A DNA stretch of 64,000 nucleotides, from assembly GCA_013115135.1 (NCBI GenBank), contig JABANP010000239.1, positions 1 through 64,000 on the forward strand, written 5' to 3'. Below the pieces are notes generated by a model. It did not search any database. It was not told the origin of the DNA and saw only the letters and a list, made by a program, of their open reading frames with translations. Origin of the DNA: Perkinsus olseni (taxonomy: Eukaryota > Perkinsozoa > Perkinsida > Perkinsidae). The stretch's first letter is position 1; every line of letters begins with the position of its first letter. This document shows positions 2,229 to 22,226 of this stretch, in pieces. The position numbers and the translations under genes were made by a program.

Positions 2229-2828
2229 AGTTCACCTAGCCGGAAACGGGGAGGCTGGGCTTAATCGAGGCGGTCGGGGGTCTAGAGGACTCCACTAGAG
2301 GTCATCCGTCTTCCAGCTTCGCGGTTCTAGATAACCCAAATCCAGGGAAAAACCATATTTCTAAAGAAAGTTGCCATTTTCTAAAGAAGTTTCGCGCTCG
2401 ACCGGGAGAGGATTGGGACTACGCTTTTGACTCTCGGATAACCTATGACCTATAACCCTAGGCCTTCGGGTTTGAGGTGATGGTCGCCCGAAGGGCGACC
2501 TGAGTCGGGTTTCGGGTTGACGGGGGTTACGGTCAGTACTCCACTAGGTCTTTTTTTCTTCAGTTTTTCTCCTTCTTTAGATTTTCGCCCTCTCGCTTAG
2601 ATTTTCGCCCGCTCGCTTAGATTTTCGCCCTCTCGCTTAGATTTTCACCGTCTACCCCAAATCCAGTCGTTTCCGAGAAAAATCGATTTTTTGGGCGTGC
2701 GCGCCCTGCGGGCGCGCGCTACCTACAAACGGAAGGAAAATTTGGGAGGAAAGAAAGAAAGAAAGGAAATTTCAGCCACCCTGCAAAAAAAACTCGCTCG
2801 CCCTAAATTCCTTTTTATCCCACAAGAA
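2229..2828. repeat. Repeat-rich segment interrupting the MULE transposase
   Basis: About 600 bp separate the first catalytic Asp of the transposase (motif CLDATFSIV, ending near 2840 on the minus strand) from the continuing frame at 2228. The segment holds a 20-bp tandem repeat (three full copies at 2581-2640, unit attttcgccctctcgcttag, plus partial ends) and two GC-rich perfect hairpins: GGTCGCCC-GAA-GGGCGACC near 2485-2503 and GCGCGCCC-TGC-GGGCGCGC near 2700-2718. A GA-rich tract precedes the junction. It could be a long intron or an insertion of a small non-autonomous element; known introns in this window are mostly about 50 nt, which favours an insertion or a repeat-swollen intron. Confidence 0.5.
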
Positions 2829-3598
2829 ATCGTTCCGCATTTCTCTACGATGGAAAATGTGGCGTCAAGACAAATATGTAGTACGTTGTTATTGGAAAGT
2901 AAACGTTGGAGAGTGCACTGGTCCCAGAAAATCAAAACCCGCTCATCGTCTGTGCTGCCAGAATCCCACAGCAACATGTCGACCGCTTTGCCGCCTACCT
3001 TTGTAGAGCAGAACTCCGGCGGGAGCGCGAAGCCCGTGAGGCTCCGTGGGGGATTGGGCAGCCCAAGAGCTCGCCGCTTTTCCTTGTTCAATTTCTGGTA
3101 AATCCCGCTCTTGCTTGGCAGCTGCTGCAGCTGGGCGTCACTACATTCTGGAACTACATCTCGGAAAGCGTCCCAAGCCGGTTGATTGACGCGGAGTTCC
3201 TGAGCCTTGCGGCACATCTTGTCGAGAAGAATCTTGCCCAAGCCAGTTGCAGTGCATGTATGCTTTTCCGCCGGTGTAGCCTCGACCCATAAGTCGGCCA
3301 CTGGCCCATGTAGATCGCCCACGACTTTTGCACGACCGCCGCAACCGCGACCCTTTTTGTAGCCCACACATCGCCAGTAGGAAGTATTCTCCGGTCGACG
3401 CGAAGGATTATTGAGACTATAGGCATGAGAGCCACACACAAGATACCGACCACGTGCATGGTCGACCAAGCAGACCTCCTCCAGCCCTGAACCATGGCGC
3501 GATCCGCGCCCAGTCGCATCACGTAATTGATGCGGATTTTGCGAAGCTGACGGTTGTGAACCCTGAGTGTTGACGTCGAGTGCGTCATGAGCTAACAT
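2723..3598 (-). CDS. MULE transposase N-terminal part with FLYWCH-type zinc finger
   Basis: N-terminal piece of the same transposase. After a Ser/Gln-rich start comes a FLYWCH-like zinc finger: YLVCGSHAYSLNN, then SYWRCVGYKKGRGCGGRAKV, closing with EKHTC, giving the Cys2-His2 pattern of this DNA-binding domain. About 120 residues later NNNVLHICLDATFSIVEK carries the first catalytic Asp of MULE transposases. From about 2828 to the ORF end at 2723 the translation turns into GA-rich low complexity and is probably not coding. The start at 3598 is the first ATG of the open frame. Together with 159-2228 this would give a protein of roughly 900 residues with the order FLYWCH, DDE transposase, acidic linker, Ulp1. 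Confidence 0.65.
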   Translation of the reverse strand: MLAHDALDVNTQGSQPSASQNPHQLRDATGRGSRHGSGLEEVCLVDHARGRYLVCGSHAYSLNNPSRRPENTSYWRCVGYKKGRGCGGRAKVVGDLHGPVADLWVEATPAEKHTCTATGLGKILLDKMCRKAQELRVNQPAWDAFRDVVPECSDAQLQQLPSKSGIYQKLNKEKRRALGLPNPPRSLTGFALPPEFCSTKVGGKAVDMLLWDSGSTDDERVLIFWDQCTLQRLLSNNNVLHICLDATFSIVEKCGTISCGIKRNLGRASFFCRVAEISFLSFFPPKFSFRL

Positions 3599-4884: not shown

Positions 4885-6089
4885 TTGACAGCCTTGCTAA
4901 CGTACTCTCCTCATATGGGGCGCAAATCAGCGAGTGGCTTCTGCCCGTGGCCGTATGTGACCAAGACTCCAGAGGACTATCACTGTGATATCGGCGGACA
5001 ACCGTGCTATTTCAGACATAAGCAAGACAACTCCACGCGATTCGAGGGACACATGAAGGACGTGCACGAGGATTTAGATTTCGGACGTATAAAATGGAGG
5101 AGGCCTCGCGATAAAGCGATGAGGAAGCAGACAAACGGTAGTACAATACTACTAGTATTGTGTTGGAGAGGAATTTCCACTCCCAACACAATATTACCGT
5201 TTTCTGCTCAGGTGTTCGCCTCGTGGAATCCGTAACGCAGCTGTACAACTATGAGGCTTTACCAAATCTGCATGTGGACGAGGAAGAAAATGAAGTGAAA
5301 GGTAGTTCTAGCGTAAATTGCACCGAATTTCGGAGTCCGAAACAACAAATCATCTGCCTCAGACTGCTCCGCGAGTTCTTCGAATCGTCGTAGCCATCCA
5401 GAAGGAGAAGCCGCAATCCGCATCGACCAAAAAGGCCGCTGACGTCGACGCTCCGCCAGAGATGGTTCTGCTAGATGACTGAGTCATCATGACGAGGAGA
5501 GGAGTCATCATGACTCCTCTCCTCAGAAATGCGTCGCGAAACGGCGCAGGTTAGAAAGTCCTTCCTCATTAGCGCGCCCTGAAGTTAAGGTTGCTCCGGC
5601 AGGGTTACTGAACCCGACTCTTCAACGGAGCCCTTTCGTACCTATGGCAACTGCCGCTACCACAAACTACTTCCTGATGCGGTTCGCCGAGTTCTCTACG
5701 GCTCAGCATTGGAATACCACTGCTATTCTAAGCAACCCGCACTTCCACGATGCCATATCATGCATACGCCCTGGTGTCGGAAGACCTTCTACCTCTCGGT
5801 CAAAGGCCATTGTATCCCAGCTAGAAGAGAAGATAGAGTCTCAAATGATTTGAGTCAAATCCAAGCTCGTCTCGAATCTTGTGAGAAGGTGACCTTCCTC
5901 ATGCAGTGGTGGTCGGCGGAGAACCAGGACAAGAGGCTCCTCATCATCACAGTCCGTGACGTGATTACTGGCCCCAGTAATACTGGGGATACGTTCCCTT
6001 GGAGAGGACGAATGCTTCGTGGCTACAGCGCAGAAGGCACTGCCTTCCAAACAGGAGCGGTATGCAGAGACCGATTTCGGAATGTGTGA
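4885..6089 (+). pseudogene. Degraded hAT-like transposase with BED-like zinc finger
   Basis: Several plus-strand frames together resemble a hAT transposase. The first (4885-5235) has a zinc-finger pattern YHCDIGGQPCYFR...RFEGHMKDVH, as in BED fingers. A middle part in shifted frames shows a basic, Ser/Pro-rich linker (KRRRLESPSS, about 5536-5570). A third part (5644-6089, two frames) has FAEFSTAQHWNTTAILSNPHF, a GRPSTSRSKAIVSQL segment and VTFLMQWWSAENQDKRLLI, which fit the hAT N-terminal pattern in which a DgWs..n motif follows. The expected catalytic Asp is replaced by Gln-Trp in this reading and the frames are interrupted. The DDE core and C-terminal dimerisation domain are not seen. Family call is tentative. 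Confidence 0.4.
5494..5524. repeat. Perfect 14-bp inverted repeat with 3-nt loop
   Basis: gaggagaggagtca at 5494-5507 is exactly reverse-complementary to 5511-5524, with tca between. It lies in the linker region of the hAT-like remnant. Origin unknown. Confidence 0.8.
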
Positions 6090-14769: not shown

Positions 14770-15107
14770 GACTGATTACTTTCTTTTTCCGAGTTGAAAA
14801 TAAGAATAAACTCTACTGCAATAAATATTAACATCAAAGTCCAGCCACATAGCACATCAAAAAAACTAGTTACAAGGCCAAAAGTGTTACTAGCCCAAGC
14901 ACAAAATGGGACAGTTGTGTTGGCGAGATGCCGGGAATTGTATCCTGGATGGACTTGCCTGCGTCTCGACATGCTCCAAGCACTATCTCTATTCAACCTC
15001 AGTATAATCCTTGTCGATGGTGCTGGTCAGCACTCTCGAACGTCGCAGTAACTTGCTCGCACTCCTCTCCAACTTAGCACAGTCACCTGGCTGCAATTCT
15101 TGCCTAG
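14770..15107. other. 5' flank of GPx-Grx up to the retrotransposon
   Basis: Probably the promoter side of the GPx-Grx gene, which starts at 14769. A minus frame with a hydrophobic stretch (LMLIFIAVEFILIF, about 14800-14850) is seen but overlaps exon 1 in another frame and has no support. Before the retrotransposon inserted, this region would have been shared, head to head, with PEX1. Confidence 0.35.
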
Positions 15108-15335
15108 TGTGGTGGCACGTCGGTTCGTGTAGGCCCCGGAACCTTGGACTGTTGAACGCGATCCCCCATAGGACAAATAAGCAAAGAAATACTTGAGCCT
15201 TGAGCCAAGATGGCTACGGATCATATACAATCCCAACCCGGAGCATTGCATCATGCGCTCACGCGGGCGGGCGAAGTATTAATTAATAGAGATACAGTCA
15301 TCAGGGATTGAACTCACGGCTGCCTGGCCGTGACA
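15108..15335 (-). repeat. 3' LTR (228 bp)
   Basis: Identical to 21570-21797 except for one base. It contains the last 19 codons of pol plus its stop (15279), then the spliced-leader sequence (15199-15220 with a partial second copy gctcaag at 15192-15198) and the gag start codon region, which here would be a free ATG downstream of the element's promoter. Confidence 0.97.
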
Positions 15336-18300
15336 CGCCCCCTCCCCGTAGTCCCAAGTCTCCTGAGAGAGTACCAACCACTCGCGAGCAGAGACACCAT
15401 CATCAGCAACGTCCCAGACAATCAGAACGCTGCCCTCCTCGCTTCGGTCTACAAGGACCGTACCCCAATGATGATCCCGAGAACCGTCGACGTGCGACAA
15501 TAGCACCCTTAGCCTAGCTCCCACTAGCGTAGGACCCATCACCAGATCCCTCGGTAGTTTCAAAGGCTGCAGGTTATAGTGGTTCTCGGTGGTTATCCTC
15601 TCTAACCCCAACCTCGGGGAAGAGTGTAGAACTCGGTAACGATGAGGAGAAAGACAGCCAACAATCCAGCCGGTCCGCCAACAAACGTCCTGTTTCCTGG
15701 AGGGCTGATGCACGATAACTGAGTCCCCCACATAGAACCGCGGTTGAGCTGGACCTCGACCTCCTAACGCCTCCAAGACAGCCCGCCTACGGGCCGGAAG
15801 GTAGTCGTTGACGAAGGCTCGCATCAGATGTGCCCGGCGTCCCACGAAGGCGGACCTCTCGGCGTCGTCCATCGCCTCCCCATGTTGGCCGCCCGAGTTG
15901 AGTTTCGGAACGGTCAGTCCCACTCCTTGGTGACTCCTGACTGAGTAACCAAAACGTAAGGAATTGGGAGTGAGCGCAACCACCCTAGCGTCGTGCGTCA
16001 CATCACCGCTCGTTAGGGGTCTCGAGTTGATGATAGCGCAGATCTCGTCGCAGAAGTCCTGGGCTAGAACCGGGTTGCTCCAGTCGCAGCTTCTGCTGTA
16101 TCCGCGGAACAGCACCCGAGCGGCTTTGAGGCCTAGCCTGTGGTGTGCCTCGAAACCCCCAGCCCAGGGAGCCCTGGGGTCCTGTAACACGACCTGGGCG
16201 TTAAGTCGTCTTCCTACCTCAGCAATGTAGGTTCGGCTTCCAACTGCACCGTCGCATACAATGTATCGGAACCGACACCCGCCCTGGCGACGGGAGACTC
16301 TCTCGGTAGCCGCCAAAAGGTCATCCGCAGTGAGGCCGCCGGCCAGTGCAATCCAGCATGAATGCTTGGTCAGTAGACATACGCAAGTGAGACACTTGAA
16401 CGGCCCGAGTGACAAGACGTCGATCCCTACCCAGAGGTAGGGTTCCGAATTCTCCATGGCAAGCTTGTAAATATCGAACTCCGGACCGCCTCCCGCCTGA
16501 CCAGGCGGAACCTCCCACTTGCGCCTACTTCTTAGAACCTGGCACCGTACGCAGGTGTCCATCTCTCCGGTCACAACCTGACGGAGCCTGGGAGAGAAAA
16601 AACCCGCCTCGATAACCCGCTCTACTGTCGCCTGGGCACTACAGTGGGCACCGGCTTTGTGATAGACCCGAGCGATCAGTCGGCGTGTGTATGGGCAGTC
16701 GCTCGGCACATAGAAGGCAAAGAACATCTTCCCATCGGCGCCCACGCATCGGTAGTAAAGCGTGCCGCCCTCGTCAACGTGGAAGCTCTTTGGTAACTTC
16801 CGGGGGTCTCGTTCTTGCGTCACCTCAACACACGAGGAGAGCTGCAAAGACCTCACGAATGATCTAGCGTCTTCGTCGGAGTAGGCTGCTGGGTACTGCA
16901 GCGGCGAAGACTCCTGTGCGGACCATACTCGGAAGACGAATCGTACAGCCTTCCACGAGTGCAGAGCGCCGTCGACGTCCCAGCTCTGGGCAGCCACCTT
17001 CTCCGGCAGGCTCGGGGGATGCGCAACGGATGCGCCATCGTCCTCCTGCAACTGGCATACTCTATCAAACGGTTGGCCAATAGGCCCCGACGGGATATCA
17101 TCGACCTGTTTGGATATTGGGAGCTCTCCCAATCGGCAGACCAGGTCGTCGAGCTCCTGCGATACGCGCGCCGGAGGATCGAGGTGACTCTGCAGGAGCC
17201 GTCCTAGTGGGGTACCACAACCCGCCTTCCTCTCCAGCGCTCTTGAGAGATAGTCCGCTCTGTGGTTCAGGACCCCTGGGAGATGTCGCATGCTTACGTT
17301 CGCCCCGAGACCCCTCAGCTCTAATACCTCAGCGCGGATGGCGGCTGCCAGCCTTTGCAACGCACGTGCTTCCAGCGCACGGGAGACCTTGACATTGTCC
17401 GCCCAACGAGCACAAGCAGCGTTGTCAGTCCGTATCGTCAGGGTCGTCCGGCACGGGCTCGACTGCGTTGCGGTCCAAGTCGACAGGAGGGTGGAGGTGA
17501 ACAGGACGCCCCGCCATAGTGCCGACAGCTCTCTTCGATTGCTGTGCCAGCAGCTGGCCCTGGCAGTCCATCGCCACGCCGCGCTACCCAGCTCGTAGGT
17601 GCCAACATCGCCAAGCTGAGCGTCATCAGGACCGACCCATAGCGAGAAACCTGCGCCTGTCAGAGAGGCATCCGTCTCCAGCACTAAGTTCACCTCCTGC
17701 CTGGGAGAGAATCTCAGCAGCGACCTATGAGAGCATCCGTCCTTGGGGTTAAGCTCCTTCAACCAACGCAATATCGCGTCATAGGCTCTCCCCAACGGCT
17801 CGGACAACCCACCTGGATCATAACTCGAGCTCCACGGCACCCGACTAAAGGCGCGACCGACCACCGCACGAAGGCAATCCGACACAAGTCGGGCGATGGG
17901 ATGTACTTGTGCCACATCATACGATGCGGCACCGGCTGCCTGGAAGGCCTGGCGCTTTGTCGGTCGTTCACAGCTGAGAAACGAATCCACCGCAGACCAT
18001 CGCGACTGACGGTTGCAATCCAGCACCAAGTGCTGGTCATCAAATGACGCTGAGAGCCCGAGGATTTCCACGCGCTCCTTCACCGGAACTCGGACATCGA
18101 ACTGCTGGCACGCCTTCCCGAACTCGGGGAGAACACTCGGGTGCACCAGAGCAGCCACCTTCGCCATCTGCGCAGTGAAGCCTAATAAGAGTAGAACAGA
18201 GATGACCACAGCAAACGCTGCGACGGCTGTGATAGCATCATCGGCCGACATCATCAAGTCATCCACGTACCAGCGGATCACGACATTCACCAAGGGCCAA

Positions 18301-19979
18301 AGGCCAATAATCAAATCACGAATCTGCTGTTCCACTCGGTGCACCCCCGTGGTCAGGAGGCCCGGGCCGAAGTGCAGGCCGAAGCTCACCCTCACACATT
18401 CGAACAACCCGATAGCAGCTTGGATGAGCACAGCATGACGAAGGAGGCGACACTTGTAGAACGCGGCCTCACAATCGCCCTGTAGTAGCAGGAGGTCCCC
18501 CTGTAGCCGCATCGACAGGACGAGGGTCCACGGGATGACCCGCGGGCTGGAGACCTTCCCCAGGGCACGGTTCACCGGCCTACAATCCAAGACCACCCTA
18601 GGTTTCCTCTCCCAGTTCGTTACAAAACACGGACACGGAGGAAGAGGGATCCTATGGGTACTGGTACCGCCAGGCCCGACAGCTCGCCAAAAGCCCCTAA
18701 CCACATACGCGTCAATGAGTTTAGCGTAAATGGCCTTCTGCTCGCATGTGAGCTTGTTATAGGCGTGCTGGGCATACAAACGGCTCCGAACCTCCGCCAT
18801 CGGCGTTTCCGGAAGGTCTATGAACAGGGCCGCCAGCTGCTCAACGCAGTCAGGGTCCTCACCATGGGCCAACCTGCGGAAAGACAGGCGGTAACCAGGT
18901 AAAGCGGGATCTTGAAAGTCGCCAAGTGCGACCAATCGCTGTACGACCGCCTCAGCTTTCTGCCGCACATCGCCGGGCAGAAGGGGCTTCAGATATCCTG
19001 ATGCTTGATCCTCCTTCAGTCGCGGTTGAGCGGTAGTGACGGCTTCTAATTGCTCGACATAGCGGATGTAGTCGGCCTCCTCAGCCACGGGCTCCCCCGG
19101 CGGAATAGCGGCCCTGCGTACTGTCCCGGTACTTAGGTCTAGGCATAGACCCAACGCTGCTCCGAGATCCCGCCCAATTAGCATACGGGTCTCGCTCGTT
19201 TTCTCGTGATTCGGAAGTACAGATACCTTGACTGGTCCAAGGGTGACTTCCGGTGGTTCCTTCACCGTGACGAAGAGGCTGAGCGTTTCCGTTATGCTGC
19301 ACCGGCTTCCATCAGCCAAGCCCACCCACACAGCAGTGGGAATCTTATGGAACCCCTTGGATTCAGAGCTCCGGTGGGCCGAATAGCCAAACGTTATATA
19401 GCTTTTGCCCGCGCCGGAGTCCACGACCGCGCGCACCCCACTTAGTTGACCAGGTGGCCTGCTGAGGCCGTGGGCGGAAGGCGACAGGGTGGCGTCGGTG
19501 ATGTCCAGCAGGATTGACAGCTCAGGAGGAGTCTCAAGGAAGACGGTGTGCTGATGATCGTTCAAGACCACCGAGCATAACTGATCATCTCCCACTCCCG
19601 TGTGCAGGGCTGTGCACGTATGGGAACCTGACGGACTCGGACTAGCAGGGCGGAGCACGTCCTGGGGCGGGGCTGTTCGAGAAGACGAACAGGGGCTAAG
19701 CGAGCGAGCTGAGGGCAAGGGTGTAGGCACACCGTCCATAGGCATTCCCGGCTCACCGCCGTTGTAGGGGATTGTAAGGTTCGGACGGCCCGAGCAGGGG
19801 GCGTCAGAACAATCCACCAGCAATGACGGGTACGGAGCATCAACAAAGGACCCATGGCATTCCGGTTGACTACCGGAAGAATCCGGCGTAGAATCATCAG
19901 CCAAACCAACAATGCGAGGGCTAGAGGGAAAAATATTGATGATCGACGTGGCTCCCTCAACCGACGTCGATCCTAGCAG
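15279..19979 (-). CDS. pol: Pol polyprotein: protease, reverse transcriptase, RNase H, integrase
   Basis: One open frame of about 1,566 codons entered by -1 frameshift from gag; it has no ATG at its 5' end (the first methionine-like codon at 19904 is TTG). Order and key residues: aspartic protease VVDSGAGKSYI; RT with VVLDCRPVNRAL, an Asp-bearing QGDCEAAFYKC and the catalytic WYVDDLMMSADD; RNase H LVLETDASLTGAGFSLWV; integrase with HHCC finger (HKAGAHC...CVRCQ), Asp in YLWVGIDVLS, Asp in IVCDGAVG and Glu in GGFEAHHRLGLKAARV. The NSRPLTSGD...LTPNSLRFG segment after the integrase core is typical of BEL/Pao elements, as is the YVDD box; order PR-RT-RH-IN excludes Copia. The stop lies inside the 3' LTR. 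All catalytic residues appear intact. Confidence 0.9.
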   Translation of the reverse strand: MLGSTSVEGATSIINIFPSSPRIVGLADDSTPDSSGSQPECHGSFVDAPYPSLLVDCSDAPCSGRPNLTIPYNGGEPGMPMDGVPTPLPSARSLSPCSSSRTAPPQDVLRPASPSPSGSHTCTALHTGVGDDQLCSVVLNDHQHTVFLETPPELSILLDITDATLSPSAHGLSRPPGQLSGVRAVVDSGAGKSYITFGYSAHRSSESKGFHKIPTAVWVGLADGSRCSITETLSLFVTVKEPPEVTLGPVKVSVLPNHEKTSETRMLIGRDLGAALGLCLDLSTGTVRRAAIPPGEPVAEEADYIRYVEQLEAVTTAQPRLKEDQASGYLKPLLPGDVRQKAEAVVQRLVALGDFQDPALPGYRLSFRRLAHGEDPDCVEQLAALFIDLPETPMAEVRSRLYAQHAYNKLTCEQKAIYAKLIDAYVVRGFWRAVGPGGTSTHRIPLPPCPCFVTNWERKPRVVLDCRPVNRALGKVSSPRVIPWTLVLSMRLQGDLLLLQGDCEAAFYKCRLLRHAVLIQAAIGLFECVRVSFGLHFGPGLLTTGVHRVEQQIRDLIIGLWPLVNVVIRWYVDDLMMSADDAITAVAAFAVVISVLLLLGFTAQMAKVAALVHPSVLPEFGKACQQFDVRVPVKERVEILGLSASFDDQHLVLDCNRQSRWSAVDSFLSCERPTKRQAFQAAGAASYDVAQVHPIARLVSDCLRAVVGRAFSRVPWSSSYDPGGLSEPLGRAYDAILRWLKELNPKDGCSHRSLLRFSPRQEVNLVLETDASLTGAGFSLWVGPDDAQLGDVGTYELGSAAWRWTARASCWHSNRRELSALWRGVLFTSTLLSTWTATQSSPCRTTLTIRTDNAACARWADNVKVSRALEARALQRLAAAIRAEVLELRGLGANVSMRHLPGVLNHRADYLSRALERKAGCGTPLGRLLQSHLDPPARVSQELDDLVCRLGELPISKQVDDIPSGPIGQPFDRVCQLQEDDGASVAHPPSLPEKVAAQSWDVDGALHSWKAVRFVFRVWSAQESSPLQYPAAYSDEDARSFVRSLQLSSCVEVTQERDPRKLPKSFHVDEGGTLYYRCVGADGKMFFAFYVPSDCPYTRRLIARVYHKAGAHCSAQATVERVIEAGFFSPRLRQVVTGEMDTCVRCQVLRSRRKWEVPPGQAGGGPEFDIYKLAMENSEPYLWVGIDVLSLGPFKCLTCVCLLTKHSCWIALAGGLTADDLLAATERVSRRQGGCRFRYIVCDGAVGSRTYIAEVGRRLNAQVVLQDPRAPWAGGFEAHHRLGLKAARVLFRGYSRSCDWSNPVLAQDFCDEICAIINSRPLTSGDVTHDARVVALTPNSLRFGYSVRSHQGVGLTVPKLNSGGQHGEAMDDAERSAFVGRRAHLMRAFVNDYLPARRRAVLEALGGRGPAQPRFYVGDSVIVHQPSRKQDVCWRTGWIVGCLSPHRYRVLHSSPRLGLERITTENHYNLQPLKLPRDLVMGPTLVGARLRVLLSHVDGSRDHHWGTVLVDRSEEGSVLIVWDVADDGVSAREWLVLSQETWDYGEGACHGQAAVSSIPDDCISIN
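15336..15349 (-). other. Polypurine tract
   Basis: In element orientation ACGGGGAGGGGGCG ends exactly at the start of the 3' LTR. This is the expected primer site for plus-strand synthesis. It lies inside the pol coding frame. Confidence 0.75.
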
Positions 19980-19985
19980 TTTCCC
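19941..19985 (-). promoter_or_regulatory. -1 programmed ribosomal frameshift signal between gag and pol
   Basis: In element orientation: slippery heptamer G GGA AAC (19985-19979) in the gag phase required for X XXY YYZ, a 6-nt spacer TGCTAG (19978-19973) that includes the gag stop, then a stem GATCGACGT (19972-19964) pairing perfectly with ACGTCGATC (19949-19941); inner bases GGTT and AGCC extend it past a one-base bulge. Slipping one base back after AAC gives CTG CTA GGA and enters the open pol frame. Confidence 0.88.
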
Positions 19986-21631
19986 GAGCTCGCGTCAGTA
20001 GCCCCAGCAGGGGGTGCGCGATCACGGAAGACAAATGGCCGATGCTTGTACTCTCCCTCCCCCAGACGGGACATTGCTGCGACGGCGTCGGGCTCGGTAT
20101 CGTAACAAGCGATCGCATACAACTTGGGCGGTCCTCGTCGGGAACGGAAGAAACGGACGTCGCTCGCGGCGAGCAGATCTCTCGTGCGCCGCTCGTCCTG
20201 ACAGCCTTCACCGGTGATGACCATGGCCTTGGCGAACCTCCTAGCCCATTGCTCTAGCTGTCCTGAAGATTTCGTCCCAGCGCCGTCAGCATACGATATC
20301 TGATCATGCTTGGGCGGTGGTATGGAATCAAAGGCGTTGGCGGCGGCCTCGACGTCCTCACAGGTGCGGCAGGTGGAGCGGATCACCTCCCGTACTGACC
20401 TCGAGTCGCAAGCAGTACGACCCCGCCAAGGGAGCATGAGTTCCCATTCTGCATCCGAAGTGTTAACGTCCGGGCGGCAAGCTTTAATTGCCCTGATGGA
20501 CAGACTTCGAATATCTCGAGGAAGTTTTCCCACTATGGCCCTGATGACCACCCTTCTCTCGCTCGATGAGGAATCAAAGACTTCCCGGTGCAAGTTGACA
20601 ATCCTATCAGCATCATTGAGGAAATTGTCACACTGGGCAACACCCGGAAACGACAGTCTTGAGATCGAAGTAACATACGCCTTCTGCAAAATCGATCGCC
20701 GGCAAAACTGGCTCAAAAGGGAGGACTTTACAGCATACCACTCCCAACGAGAGCTCTGAGCCTGATCTTCCGCCACCGATCTGAGGTTCGTGGGATTCAG
20801 CGATGCGACAAGCCTCGAAACACATGCCACCCGGAGATGCCCGTGTGGGATAAACACACCAGATGTAAAGGACCCCGCGTTTGCTTCGGCCAGGATTGCC
20901 TCCACAGTCGCAAAGTGTCGAGGAAGGTCGATGGGGTCTTCACATAACGCAAGTTTGAGGCGCGAAACCTCAGTCGGGGAGGCGAGGCGCCGCGGTAGAT
21001 CCTGAGCCGCATCAGGCCTCACTCTGCCTACCTGACTTGCTAGTTCCTCGCATCCCTCGCTCTTCTGGCTATGCGACCAAAGCACCGTTGCTTCCTCCCC
21101 TCTGCCTCCTAACATGTCCTTCAGAGGGTCTTGTCGCTCGGGGGGTGGCTTGTGGACTACATGTGGCACCAGGCCCAACCGCCTGGCAGACCTCCCATCC
21201 GAACGTGTGCCATCGATCGAAGGGGCCGGCGAGCCAACTCGAGACCGCCCTTCCTCTCTGGCCTTCATTGCACGGAGACCATCGACCCTGGCCGTGATCT
21301 CGGCAATGTCGGCGTCAAGTGAGTCGATTCTCAGGGCTAGGTTGCCGTCTTTCTCCTGGAGCTCCTCAAGTATTTCGCAGTCTTCTTTGTACTGCTCGGC
21401 AGGTGCGTTCTCATCGATTATGATGTTGTCAATGGACTCGCGGACGCGCTTCTGGGTGCCTCGCACCCGCCCACGCTCCACACGCAGAGAGCGCAGTTGC
21501 TTCTTCAAGTCCTCAAGCACACGCGCCTCCGGGACCTTCAGCAGATCACCTTGTGCACAGCTGTCACCATGTGGTGGCACGTCGGTTCGTGTAGGCCCCG
21601 GAACCTTGGACTGTTGAACGCGATCCCCCAT
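19973..21631 (-). CDS. gag: Gag-like structural protein
   Basis: About 552 residues from the first ATG (21631, MGDRVQQSKV), which lies inside the 5' LTR, to the TAG at 19973. The frame is open back to a TTG at 21670, but that lies in the spliced leader and is not a likely start. The first 130 residues form a charged coiled coil (EDLKKQLRSLRVERGRVRG, then DEN/EEL-rich). The rest is helical with conserved-looking stretches (VACVSRLVASLNP, AVKSSLLSQFCRR). No CCHC zinc knuckle is present; only a single CRTC pair is seen, so RNA packaging must use other basic residues. The C-terminus overlaps the frameshift site. Confidence 0.8.
   Translation of the reverse strand: MGDRVQQSKVPGPTRTDVPPHGDSCAQGDLLKVPEARVLEDLKKQLRSLRVERGRVRGTQKRVRESIDNIIIDENAPAEQYKEDCEILEELQEKDGNLALRIDSLDADIAEITARVDGLRAMKAREEGRSRVGSPAPSIDGTRSDGRSARRLGLVPHVVHKPPPERQDPLKDMLGGRGEEATVLWSHSQKSEGCEELASQVGRVRPDAAQDLPRRLASPTEVSRLKLALCEDPIDLPRHFATVEAILAEANAGSFTSGVFIPHGHLRVACVSRLVASLNPTNLRSVAEDQAQSSRWEWYAVKSSLLSQFCRRSILQKAYVTSISRLSFPGVAQCDNFLNDADRIVNLHREVFDSSSSERRVVIRAIVGKLPRDIRSLSIRAIKACRPDVNTSDAEWELMLPWRGRTACDSRSVREVIRSTCRTCEDVEAAANAFDSIPPPKHDQISYADGAGTKSSGQLEQWARRFAKAMVITGEGCQDERRTRDLLAASDVRFFRSRRGPPKLYAIACYDTEPDAVAAMSRLGEGEYKHRPFVFRDRAPPAGATDASSGNC
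21554..21569 (-). other. Primer-binding site complementary to tRNA-Leu
   Basis: Directly after the 5' LTR (no spacer) the element reads TGGTGACAGCTGTG. The tRNA-Leu(TAG) at 39715-39794 plus CCA ends GGCTGTCACCA; its reverse complement starts TGGTGACAGCCGTG. Ten bases match without a gap and 13 of the first 14 overall. Confidence 0.85.
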
Positions 21632-21797
21632 AGGACAAATAAGCAAAGAAATACTTGAGCCTTGAGCCAAGATGGCTACGGATCATATACAATCCCAACC
21701 CGGAGCATTGCATCATGCGCTCACGCGGGCGGGCGAAGTATTAATTAGTAGAGATACAGTCATCAGGGATTGAACTCACGGCTGCCTGGCCGTGACA
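21570..21797 (-). repeat. 5' LTR (228 bp)
   Basis: 99.6% identical to the 3' LTR. In element orientation the upstream part carries TTGTATATGATCC just before the spliced-leader sequence, then a short leader and the gag ATG (21631), so about 20 gag codons lie in the LTR. Confidence 0.97.
21654..21682 (-). other. Spliced-leader sequence embedded in the LTR, with a partial second copy
   Basis: 21682-21661 (minus) gives 22 nt that begin TCCGTAGCC and end CCATCTTGGCTCAAG, the dinoflagellate/Perkinsus trans-spliced leader with C in place of the usual T. It is followed at once by GCTCAAG (21660-21654), a repeat of its 3' end. Leader followed by a truncated leader is what repeated trans-splicing and reverse transcription leave in dinoflagellate retrogenes. 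The other LTR has the same sequence at 15192-15220. No GT follows, so this is not an SL RNA gene. Confidence 0.88.
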
Positions 21798-22226
21798 TAG
21801 AGGGCCATGTTATCCATGCTGTGTCGAATACCCACACTAGTGGACGTCCTCGCAGGGCACGAAGCATGCCCTGCTTCATATCCGTACTCTAATAGTAAGA
21901 AGACGCGAAAGGTGGTGCCAAAAAGGAGACAACACGGCCGAGAAAGCGTGAAATCTCCATGATCGCCGCTAGTGTTGCTACAAGGAGGGAGAATGATTCC
22001 GGGCATGTCCAACAGTAATAGCTCAGAGTAATCCTATTTCTGTGGTACATGAGTACCATGACCATCACCAAGGCAAGCGTTAGAAGTGAACTGAGCTGAT
22101 TGGCCGTGGGGGAATTGCAAGGAGTCTTTAGTTTTGCAAGATTCGCCGGCAAGCAGCAGGACTGTTGTTGAATGTTATCACCGTCGAGGCCTACTAGACC
22201 GCTTCTCTGTTCAGTTCATTCACCAA
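21798..22226. other. Region between retrotransposon and PEX1
   Basis: Probably the PEX1 promoter and 5' leader. An AG at 22214 or nearby could serve as trans-splice acceptor before the ATG at 22227. No other gene seen. Confidence 0.35.

What the first reader, a model, noticed from the sequence alone, without database searches (positions are those of the whole stretch)
15108..21797. LTR retrotransposon that encodes the host spliced leader in both LTRs
Each LTR of an intact, nearly fresh BEL/Pao-like element contains the 22-nt trans-spliced leader in sense orientation, followed by a truncated second copy (GCTCAAG), about 29 nt before the gag ATG. Leader relicts are known in dinoflagellate retrogenes; finding one fixed in the LTR of a working retrovirus-like element suggests that its RNA either starts at the leader and mimics a mature host mRNA, or was once trans-spliced and copied back. 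Either way the leader must lie within or at the edge of R. This may be an undescribed way for a retroelement to obtain host-like 5' ends in a trans-splicing organism.
Basis: partly seen in the sequence, partly recalled or inferred. Interest (0 to 1): 0.88.

Follow-up and report, generated by a model that had tools for sequence, protein, structure and literature searches.

The report
Retrotransposons with built-in host spliced leader
Several unrelated-looking families of retrovirus-like jumping genes in a Perkinsus parasite carry an exact copy of the short leader that the cell splices onto its own messages, placed just before their first gene, which suggests that they make their RNA look like, or pass through, the host's own message processing.

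Summary
Confirmed, and larger than reported. The window holds an LTR retrotransposon (minus strand, 15108-21797; LTRs differ at 1 of 228 sites) with the host spliced leader (SL) in both LTRs, 29 nt before the gag ATG. The 61.5-Mb genome (Perkinsus, nearest P. olseni) has 85 exact copies of the 21-nt SL core: 36 in SL RNA genes or their arrays, 46 in LTRs of nine families, 3 elsewhere. Apart from one related pair, the families share no clear U3 sequence next to the SL. In the copies tested the first ATG comes 23-69 nt later. Ten related elements lack an SL where it was sought.

Best explanation (0.45): the element RNA is trans-spliced and copied back. An SL at the 5' edge of R lets strong-stop cDNA ending in SL complement pair with the 3' LTR, and each cycle renews the leader. 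Support: in two families some LTRs have the SL joined just after a downstream AG, with U3 unchanged. Main rival (0.35): transcription starts at the encoded SL. No RNA data were available. The BEL/Pao label is not supported. Eight searches of open-licence papers showed no SL-bearing LTR.

The parts
21570..21797 (-). 5' LTR (228 nt)
   Evidence: direct repeat with 15108-15335; TG...CA ends; TAG target duplication at 21798-21800
15108..15335 (-). 3' LTR (228 nt)
   Evidence: direct repeat; TAG target duplication at 15105-15107
21661..21681 (-). 21-nt spliced-leader core CCGTAGCCATCTTGGCTCAAG in the 5' LTR (preceded by T at 21682)
   Evidence: exact pattern match, 0 in 100 shuffles; same 21 nt as the exon of the SL RNA gene units read
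15199..15219 (-). 21-nt spliced-leader core in the 3' LTR
   Evidence: exact pattern match
21654..21660 (-). truncated second leader copy GCTCAAG directly after the SL, 5' LTR
   Evidence: sequence; relatives at C2 and C899 have CTCAAG here
15192..15198 (-). truncated second leader copy GCTCAAG, 3' LTR
   Evidence: sequence
21558..21569 (-). primer-binding-site-like TGGTGACAGCTG
   Evidence: directly abuts the 5' LTR; the same 12 nt follow the family I 5' LTR at C249
15336..15349 (-). polypurine tract ACGGGGAGGGGGCG
   Evidence: directly abuts the 3' LTR; other families have GGGGGGCG, or GGGGGGCATA/GGGGGGCGTA, at this place
19973..21631 (-). gag-like ORF, 552 aa; its first ATG is 29 nt after the SL and inside the LTR
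   Evidence: no Pfam match for its last 528 aa, but similar to the gag-position ORFs of families A, B and I
15279..19904 (-). pol ORF, 1541 aa: DSGAG protease-like motif (by eye), reverse transcriptase, integrase zinc-binding domain
   Evidence: weak RVT_1 and Integrase_H2C2 matches, both below Pfam cut-off; 41 homologous stretches in the genome, itself included

Best explanation
SHOWN: nine LTR families of this Perkinsus genome, the window's among them, carry the exact 21-nt core of the host spliced leader inside the LTR, in sense, just before the first ATG downstream. INFERRED: the SL marks the 5' edge of R, and the RNA that is reverse-transcribed begins with the SL. COMMITTED MECHANISM: a precursor transcribed from U3 is trans-spliced by the host. 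The acceptor is the AG that ends the encoded SL, or occasionally the next AG downstream, so the genomic RNA starts with a fresh host SL. Reverse transcription from the PBS runs to the RNA's 5' end and gives strong-stop cDNA ending in SL complement. That end can pair with the 3' LTR only because an SL is already encoded there in R. The encoded SL is thus both the footprint of trans-splicing and the homology that lets a trans-spliced RNA complete first-strand transfer. Each cycle rewrites the SL from the host's SL RNA, and a shift to a downstream AG leaves an LTR with U3-SL unchanged and the stretch between SL and AG lost.
For: 1) Recurrence: of 85 exact SL cores, 36 are SL RNA genes or lie in their arrays, 46 lie in LTRs of nine families and 3 lie elsewhere. 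The reversed-pattern control gives 0 against 183 hits at up to 2 mismatches. 2) Apart from the SL, the LTRs are unalike: of 45 pairs among 10 SL-bearing sequences, only F-H share clear U3 similarity in the 110 nt before the SL (z 12.9); two further pairs, B-C and H-J, show 13-nt matches reached by 1 and 2 of 200 shuffles. 3) Position: first ATG 23-69 nt after the SL in the tested copies of the nine families, 14 nt in K. In the best copy held it opens a long ORF in six families (552 aa in the window, at least 489 in E, at least 477 in I, at least 190 in C, 228 in A, at least 176 in B). 4) Junctions: family C has 3 loci with SL|GTCTCAG|TGTACG and 3 with SL|TGTACG (2 of these are the LTRs of one element), U3 side kept. 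The more diverged copy L095 has the long form, so the loss looks derived. In family B, 1 of 12 exact-SL copies has lost 46 nt ending in ...GGGAG. Both losses start exactly at the SL's end and stop just after an AG; AG cut points are 6 of 89 and 3 of 66 positions. 5) F and H share U3 up to the SL but not the stretch after it. 6) The base before CCG is T, G or A, never C, in the 46 exact LTR copies (44, 2 in the window), like the 'D' of the dinoflagellate SL (PMC12014239, passage); weak.
Against: No RNA data. The C and B short forms could be deletions with AG/AG microhomology, because the SL itself ends in AG. The short forms need only about two or three events. The base before CCG is T in 6 of the 10 SL-bearing sequences (all or most copies), not the A of the SL RNA genes, so the first leader base is either not copied or not from SL RNA. 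TATA-like stretches within 15 nt before the SL in 5 of 9 families fit a transcription start at the SL better. Ten related elements lack an SL where it was sought, so the trick is optional. One single old acquisition of the SL is not rejected (p-AU 0.215). In an SL-blind set of family A copies I cannot show that the SL is better kept than its flanks. Some copies have early stops in the gag-position ORF.
Confidence: 0.45

Rival explanations
1. Start-site mimicry: RNA polymerase starts at the encoded SL, so the genomic RNA begins with a host-like leader without any splicing. The SL is kept by selection, for translation, export or evasion.
For: SL sits at a plausible R start, 23-69 nt before the first ATG. 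A TATA or TATT stretch lies within 15 nt before the SL in 5 of 9 families (A, B, D, F, I) against about 1.5 expected from the rest of U3 (P about 0.003; motif and window chosen after looking), and the SL RNA genes have CTATAGGTTA or CTATATGTTA there. An RNA-virus precedent, a dinoRNAV with a 5' dinoSL read as mimicry, is described in PMC10235124 (passages).
Against: No such stretch in C, E, H and J representatives (one H copy, L088, has TATAAAAG), and the distance is much shorter than for a usual TATA box (recalled). Start-site choice does not explain why the C and B short forms end just after an AG with U3 unchanged.
Confidence: 0.35
2. One ancient capture of an SL from a trans-spliced element RNA, inherited ever since. 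It is now a passive or mildly useful relic, like the SL relicts of dinoflagellate retrogenes.
For: A single clade of SL-bearing elements is not rejected (p-AU 0.215, 14 rows, 177 columns). Decayed SLs occur (12 of the 15 one-mismatch hits fetched lie in the same LTR families or close relatives; F2 copies at C2 and C899).
Against: Families whose pol pieces are about 30% identical, and whose LTRs do not align, still hold 21 of 21 bases. The first ATG stays anchored to the SL. In C and B the downstream junction moved while the SL stayed.
Confidence: 0.12
3. Repeated spread of the SL among families by inter-element strand transfer or recombination at the SL, without ongoing trans-splicing.
For: F and H share U3 but not the downstream part. 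C and H share SL+GTCTCAGT although their U3s differ.
Against: The C-H match is 8 nt and did not stand out in the shuffle test. It does not explain the first acquisition or the AG-ending losses.
Confidence: 0.06
4. Chance or an assembly artefact.
For: None found.
Against: 0 of 100 shuffles; 0 reversed-pattern hits against 183; many contigs, target duplications and solo LTRs.
Confidence: 0.01

Closest known systems
Relict spliced leaders of dinoflagellate retrogenes (DinoRL; PMC12014239, passages)
   Same: An SL copied back from a trans-spliced RNA into DNA; relicts lie in tandem behind a new SL.
   Different: Those are host retrogenes tagged at the 5' end. Here the SL core is complete, sits in both LTRs of retrotransposons, and recurs in nine families.
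Cer1 of C. elegans, an SL1 trans-spliced gypsy/Ty3 element (PMC3315495, passages)
   Same: LTR retrotransposon RNAs that receive the host SL.
   Different: In the passages read, SL1 is added at a splice acceptor and RNAs starting 5' of it also exist; nothing there says that the SL is encoded in the LTR.
Hydra TE transcripts: about 30% of TE Iso-Seq reads carry an SL (PMC12220107, passages)
   Same: Host trans-splicing of TE RNAs is common in an SL organism.
   Different: No SL encoded in LTRs is mentioned in the passages read.
DinoRNAV with a 5' dinoSL (Levin et al. 2017, seen only as described in PMC10235124, passages)
   Same: A selfish RNA with the host leader at its 5' end; mimicry was proposed.
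   Different: A +ssRNA virus, not an LTR element. There is no LTR cycle in which the SL can serve as R homology.
Perkinsus L-type SL RNA (PmaSL1; PMC3101222, passages and section 14)
   Same: The 21-nt core is identical to positions 2-22 of PmaSL1.
   Different: The SL RNA gene units read continue with GTAAATATC or close forms; the LTR copies do not.

Membership tests
LTR retrotransposon (general) | two LTRs with TG...CA ends, PBS, PPT, target duplication | tested here: met
   (window: 228-nt LTRs, TGGTGACAGCTG, ACGGGGAGGGGGCG, 3-bp duplication)
LTR retrotransposon (general) | gag and pol with reverse transcriptase and integrase | tested here: met
   552-aa and 1541-aa ORFs. RVT_1 and Integrase_H2C2 matches are weak, both under Pfam cut-off; many homologous pol stretches in the genome
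BEL/Pao superfamily | BEL/Pao-type Pfam domains (Peptidase_A17, DUF1758, DUF5641; recalled names) | tested here: not met
   none found up to E=10 for the window's pol and the last 528 aa of gag, nor up to E=1 for 6 homologues. Divergence may hide them
BEL/Pao superfamily | 4-5 bp target duplication (recalled) | tested here: not met
   3 bp in the window and in families A and B, 4 bp in two C copies; 3 bp read by eye for family I
Ty3/gypsy | strong RVT_1 and rve matches | tested here: inconclusive
   RVT_1 E 2.6e-4, below cut-off. Best solved-structure match of a 7-row profile is Ty3 Gag-Pol at E 0.28, not significant
Ty1/copia | RVT_2 domain | tested here: inconclusive
   PF07727 not among the window pol's Pfam matches. 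The genome search with it found nothing, but rang in no control genome either
SL RNA gene | SL exon followed by a GT splice donor and SL intron | tested here: not met
   the SL RNA gene units read have GTAAATATC or close forms after the SL; the window LTR has GCTCAAGTATTT
Dinoflagellate-type SL-relict retrogene | single SL-tagged cDNA copy, no LTRs | tested here: not met
   SL lies inside both LTRs
Trans-spliced LTR element (Cer1-like) | element RNA shown to start with the SL | not testable with these tools
   no RNA data

The most novel reading that the evidence does not exclude
A community of LTR retrotransposons has made the host's spliced leader its R region: the genomic RNA is made by trans-splicing, the encoded SL is the obligatory homology for first-strand transfer, the host's SL RNA rewrites it every cycle, and because all these families share the same R handle, strand transfer can jump between families and shuffle U3 and U5 at the SL.
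Probability: 0.28. Interest if true: 0.92.

Novelty: new variant of a known kind. Interest (0 to 1): 0.8.

Why it matters
In organisms that trans-splice their mRNAs, an LTR element faces a plain problem: the splice removes the 5' part of R that first-strand transfer needs. Putting the leader into the LTR would solve it. If true, part of the LTR is supplied in trans by a host RNA gene, which ties element evolution to host leader evolution. It also gives a direct test with natural leader variants. If instead the RNA starts at the encoded SL, it is a DNA-encoded imitation of a processed host mRNA end in many element families, which is also unusual.

Tried and rejected
Chance: rejected. LTR match as an SL RNA gene: rejected, because the donor and intron are absent and those genes form separate arrays. 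BEL/Pao label: no support; Copia: nothing found, control weak. NCBIfam and solved-structure searches did not classify pol. SL motif in viral and prokaryote contig collections: one virus-like contig and two MAG contigs with the dinoflagellate form, no LTR seen around them. K (C810, gypsy-like RT 0.6 kb after an SL) showed no LTRs in 3 kb and is not counted as an LTR family. G (C289) proved to be an SL-led ORF beside a different LTR with a decayed SL, and is not counted. The C11 pair is a duplicated stretch, not two LTRs of one element. D and J: LTR start and PPT are clear, but the 3' LTR end is not defined in the sequence held. An excess of conservation of the SL over U3 could not be shown in family A, and loci found through the SL are biased for that purpose.
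Full report
OBSERVATION. The window carries a minus-strand LTR retrotransposon at 15108-21797: 228-nt LTRs with one difference, a PBS-like TGGTGACAGCTG, a purine tract, and a 3-bp target duplication. The 22-mer TCCGTAGCCATCTTGGCTCAAG is exact in both LTRs in sense, with 0 matches in 100 shuffles, and is followed by GCTCAAG. The first ATG comes 29 nt later, inside the LTR, and opens a 552-aa ORF. A 1541-aa pol ORF follows. Pol gives only weak RVT_1 and Integrase_H2C2 matches, both below cut-off. No BEL/Pao domain was found, so I leave the superfamily open.

HOST. A PEX1-like ORF next to the element is 96% identical to a P. olseni protein and 71% to a P. chesapeaki one. The pol is 87-96% identical to two P. 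olseni proteins and 59-72% to two P. marinus proteins. The genome is therefore Perkinsus, nearest P. olseni. Its SL RNA genes lie in arrays (C268, C41, C871, C270, C586) or singly (C16) and read ...ttA|CCGTAGCCATCTTGGCTCAAG|GTAAATATC... or close to it. Not every unit of each array was read; the rest are inferred from spacing. The exon equals PmaSL1 of P. marinus (PMC3101222, passages).

CENSUS. One search found 183 matches of the 21-nt core with up to 2 mismatches and 0 for the reversed pattern; it listed the first 100, of which 85 are exact. Of the 85, 36 are SL RNA genes or lie in their arrays. By their flanks, 46 lie in LTRs of nine families: A 12, B 12, C 6, D 3, E 4, F (window) 2, H 3, I 2, J 2. 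Three lie elsewhere (C289, C445, C810). Of the 15 one-mismatch hits listed and fetched, 12 are in the same families or close relatives (B 4, A 2, C 1, E 3, one E-like, one H-like), 1 is an SL RNA gene and 2 are unassigned. The other 83 hits were not listed and not read.

ANATOMY OF THE FAMILIES. LTR starts and the adjoining PPT (GGGGGGCG or close forms) are seen in A, B, C, D, E, H, I and J besides the window. LTR pairs with the SL in both LTRs are held for six elements: C856 and C584 (A), C438 (C), C714 (E), C156 (F) and C249 (I); in C584, C438 and C714 one LTR is cut by the contig end. Solo LTRs with target duplications occur in A, B and C. The SL lies 116-350 nt after the LTR start. Among ten SL-bearing sequences (nine families plus K), 45 pairs were compared. 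In the 110 nt before the SL only F-H are clearly alike (z 12.9), with 13-nt matches for B-C and H-J; in the 60 nt after it A-J and B-E show short matches. The SL is thus the one thing common to all. The first ATG after the SL was looked at in 22 copies: it comes 23-69 nt after the SL in the nine families and 14 nt after it in K. In the best copy held, that ATG opens a long ORF in six families (A, B, C, E, F, I) and a medium one in K (168 aa) and D (118-136 aa); in H and J it is short, and some copies of B, C and E have early stops.

CONTROLS. Ten related elements, chosen among the pol matches, were examined in the 500-600 nt after their pol match: C43, C188, C153, C685, C952, C232, C183, C541, C137 and C267. 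In 10 of 10 the best sense match to the SL core has 7 or more mismatches of 21. An SL further downstream in a long LTR is not excluded, and the other pol matches were not examined for this. A tree of 14 RT pieces (6 SL-bearing, 8 without) groups F/I/J and A/D and leaves B on a long branch. The label needs at least two changes on this tree, and one clade is not rejected (p-AU 0.215). C, E, H and K are not in the tree. C137, the closest relative of family I over the integrase part (54%), has no SL in the stretch read.

JUNCTIONS. These are the best mechanistic evidence. In family C, six loci match SL-N{0,30}-TGTACGTTYGGTTG: three have GTCTCAG between and three have nothing, two of these being the LTRs of one element. 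The U3 side of the SL is kept in both forms, and the more diverged copy L095 has the long form. In family B, one of 12 exact-SL copies (C748) has the SL joined directly to CGGAACACC; the 46 nt present in most of the others end in GGGAG. Both losses start exactly where the SL ends and stop just after an AG. Trans-splicing to that AG followed by reverse transcription predicts exactly this; AG cut points make up 6 of 89 and 3 of 66 positions. Because the SL itself ends in AG, a deletion with two-base microhomology gives the same product, so this is support and not proof.

MECHANISM. In a normal cycle, strong-stop cDNA made on the RNA's 5' R anneals to the 3' R (established knowledge of LTR replication). 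If the host replaces the RNA's 5' end with the SL, the cDNA ends in SL complement and that end has no partner in a 3' LTR that lacks the SL. An LTR that encodes the SL at the edge of R removes that block, and afterwards each cycle copies the SL from the host's SL RNA. This accounts for exact SLs between unlike flanks, the fixed U3-SL junction, the movable SL-R junction, and the distance to the first ATG. It does not by itself explain why the base before CCG is usually T while the SL RNA genes have A. Either the capped first base is not copied, or that base belongs to U3. The rival, a transcription start at the encoded SL, fits the anatomy too. In its favour, TATA or TATT lies within 15 nt before the SL in 5 of 9 families against about 1.5 expected (P about 0.003, motif chosen after looking), in the place where the SL RNA genes have CTATAGGTTA. 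It does not predict the AG-ending losses. The two could also act together.

OTHER RESULTS AGAINST OR BESIDE THIS READING. In an SL-blind search with the U3 of family A, 12 of 15 full-length hits have an exact SL, 1 (C291) has a 1-nt deletion that happens to equal the short P. marinus leader (PmaSL2), and 2 have no exact SL listed. This does not show that the SL is kept better than its flanks. Two relatives of the window's LTR (C2, C899) are 87-89% identical, yet carry four changes within five bases of the SL.

KNOWN AND NEW. Trans-spliced TE RNAs are known (Cer1, PMC3315495; Hydra, PMC12220107), SL relicts are known in dinoflagellate retrogenes (PMC12014239), and an RNA virus with a 5' dinoSL has been described (in PMC10235124). 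For these I saw passages only. Eight searches showed no LTR element with an encoded SL. I saw their listings (in only the top of a longer list), starts of abstracts, and passages of some papers; the library holds open-licence papers only.

Noticed in passing
L119 (IMGVR_UViG_3300045993_001077), 2746-2766(-) and 2893-2913(-): A virus-like contig carries two exact copies of the dinoflagellate spliced leader (CCGTAGCCATTTTGGCTCAAG), one ending about 46 nt before the ATG of a 254-aa ORF.
   Followed up: no
L124 (C291:40150-40450): The only match (up to 1 mismatch) to the short P. marinus leader (PmaSL2) in this genome sits in a family A 5' LTR, preceded by A as in SL RNA genes. It may be a 1-nt deletion or a copy of a rare host leader.
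   Followed up: partly
L027 (C289, SL at 5953-5974 minus): An exact SL with a 193-aa ORF open to the end of the piece lies about 14 nt downstream of an E/O-type LTR that has its own SL with two changes.
   Followed up: partly
families A, B, F (and I by eye): Target duplications are 3 bp, and 4 bp in two copies of family C, shorter than usual for LTR elements (usual size recalled).
   Followed up: partly
families A, C, D, F, H, directly after the SL: Five of ten SL-bearing sequences have an AG at positions 6-7 after the SL (ACCTTAG, GTCTCAG, GTGCGAG, GCTCAAG, GTCTCAG), possibly a second acceptor or decayed relict leaders.
   Followed up: no
L105 (C131:49499): An SL-like stretch with one change is followed by GTAAATGCC, as in SL RNA genes, and preceded by CTCAAG; it lies in a locally duplicated region.
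   Followed up: no
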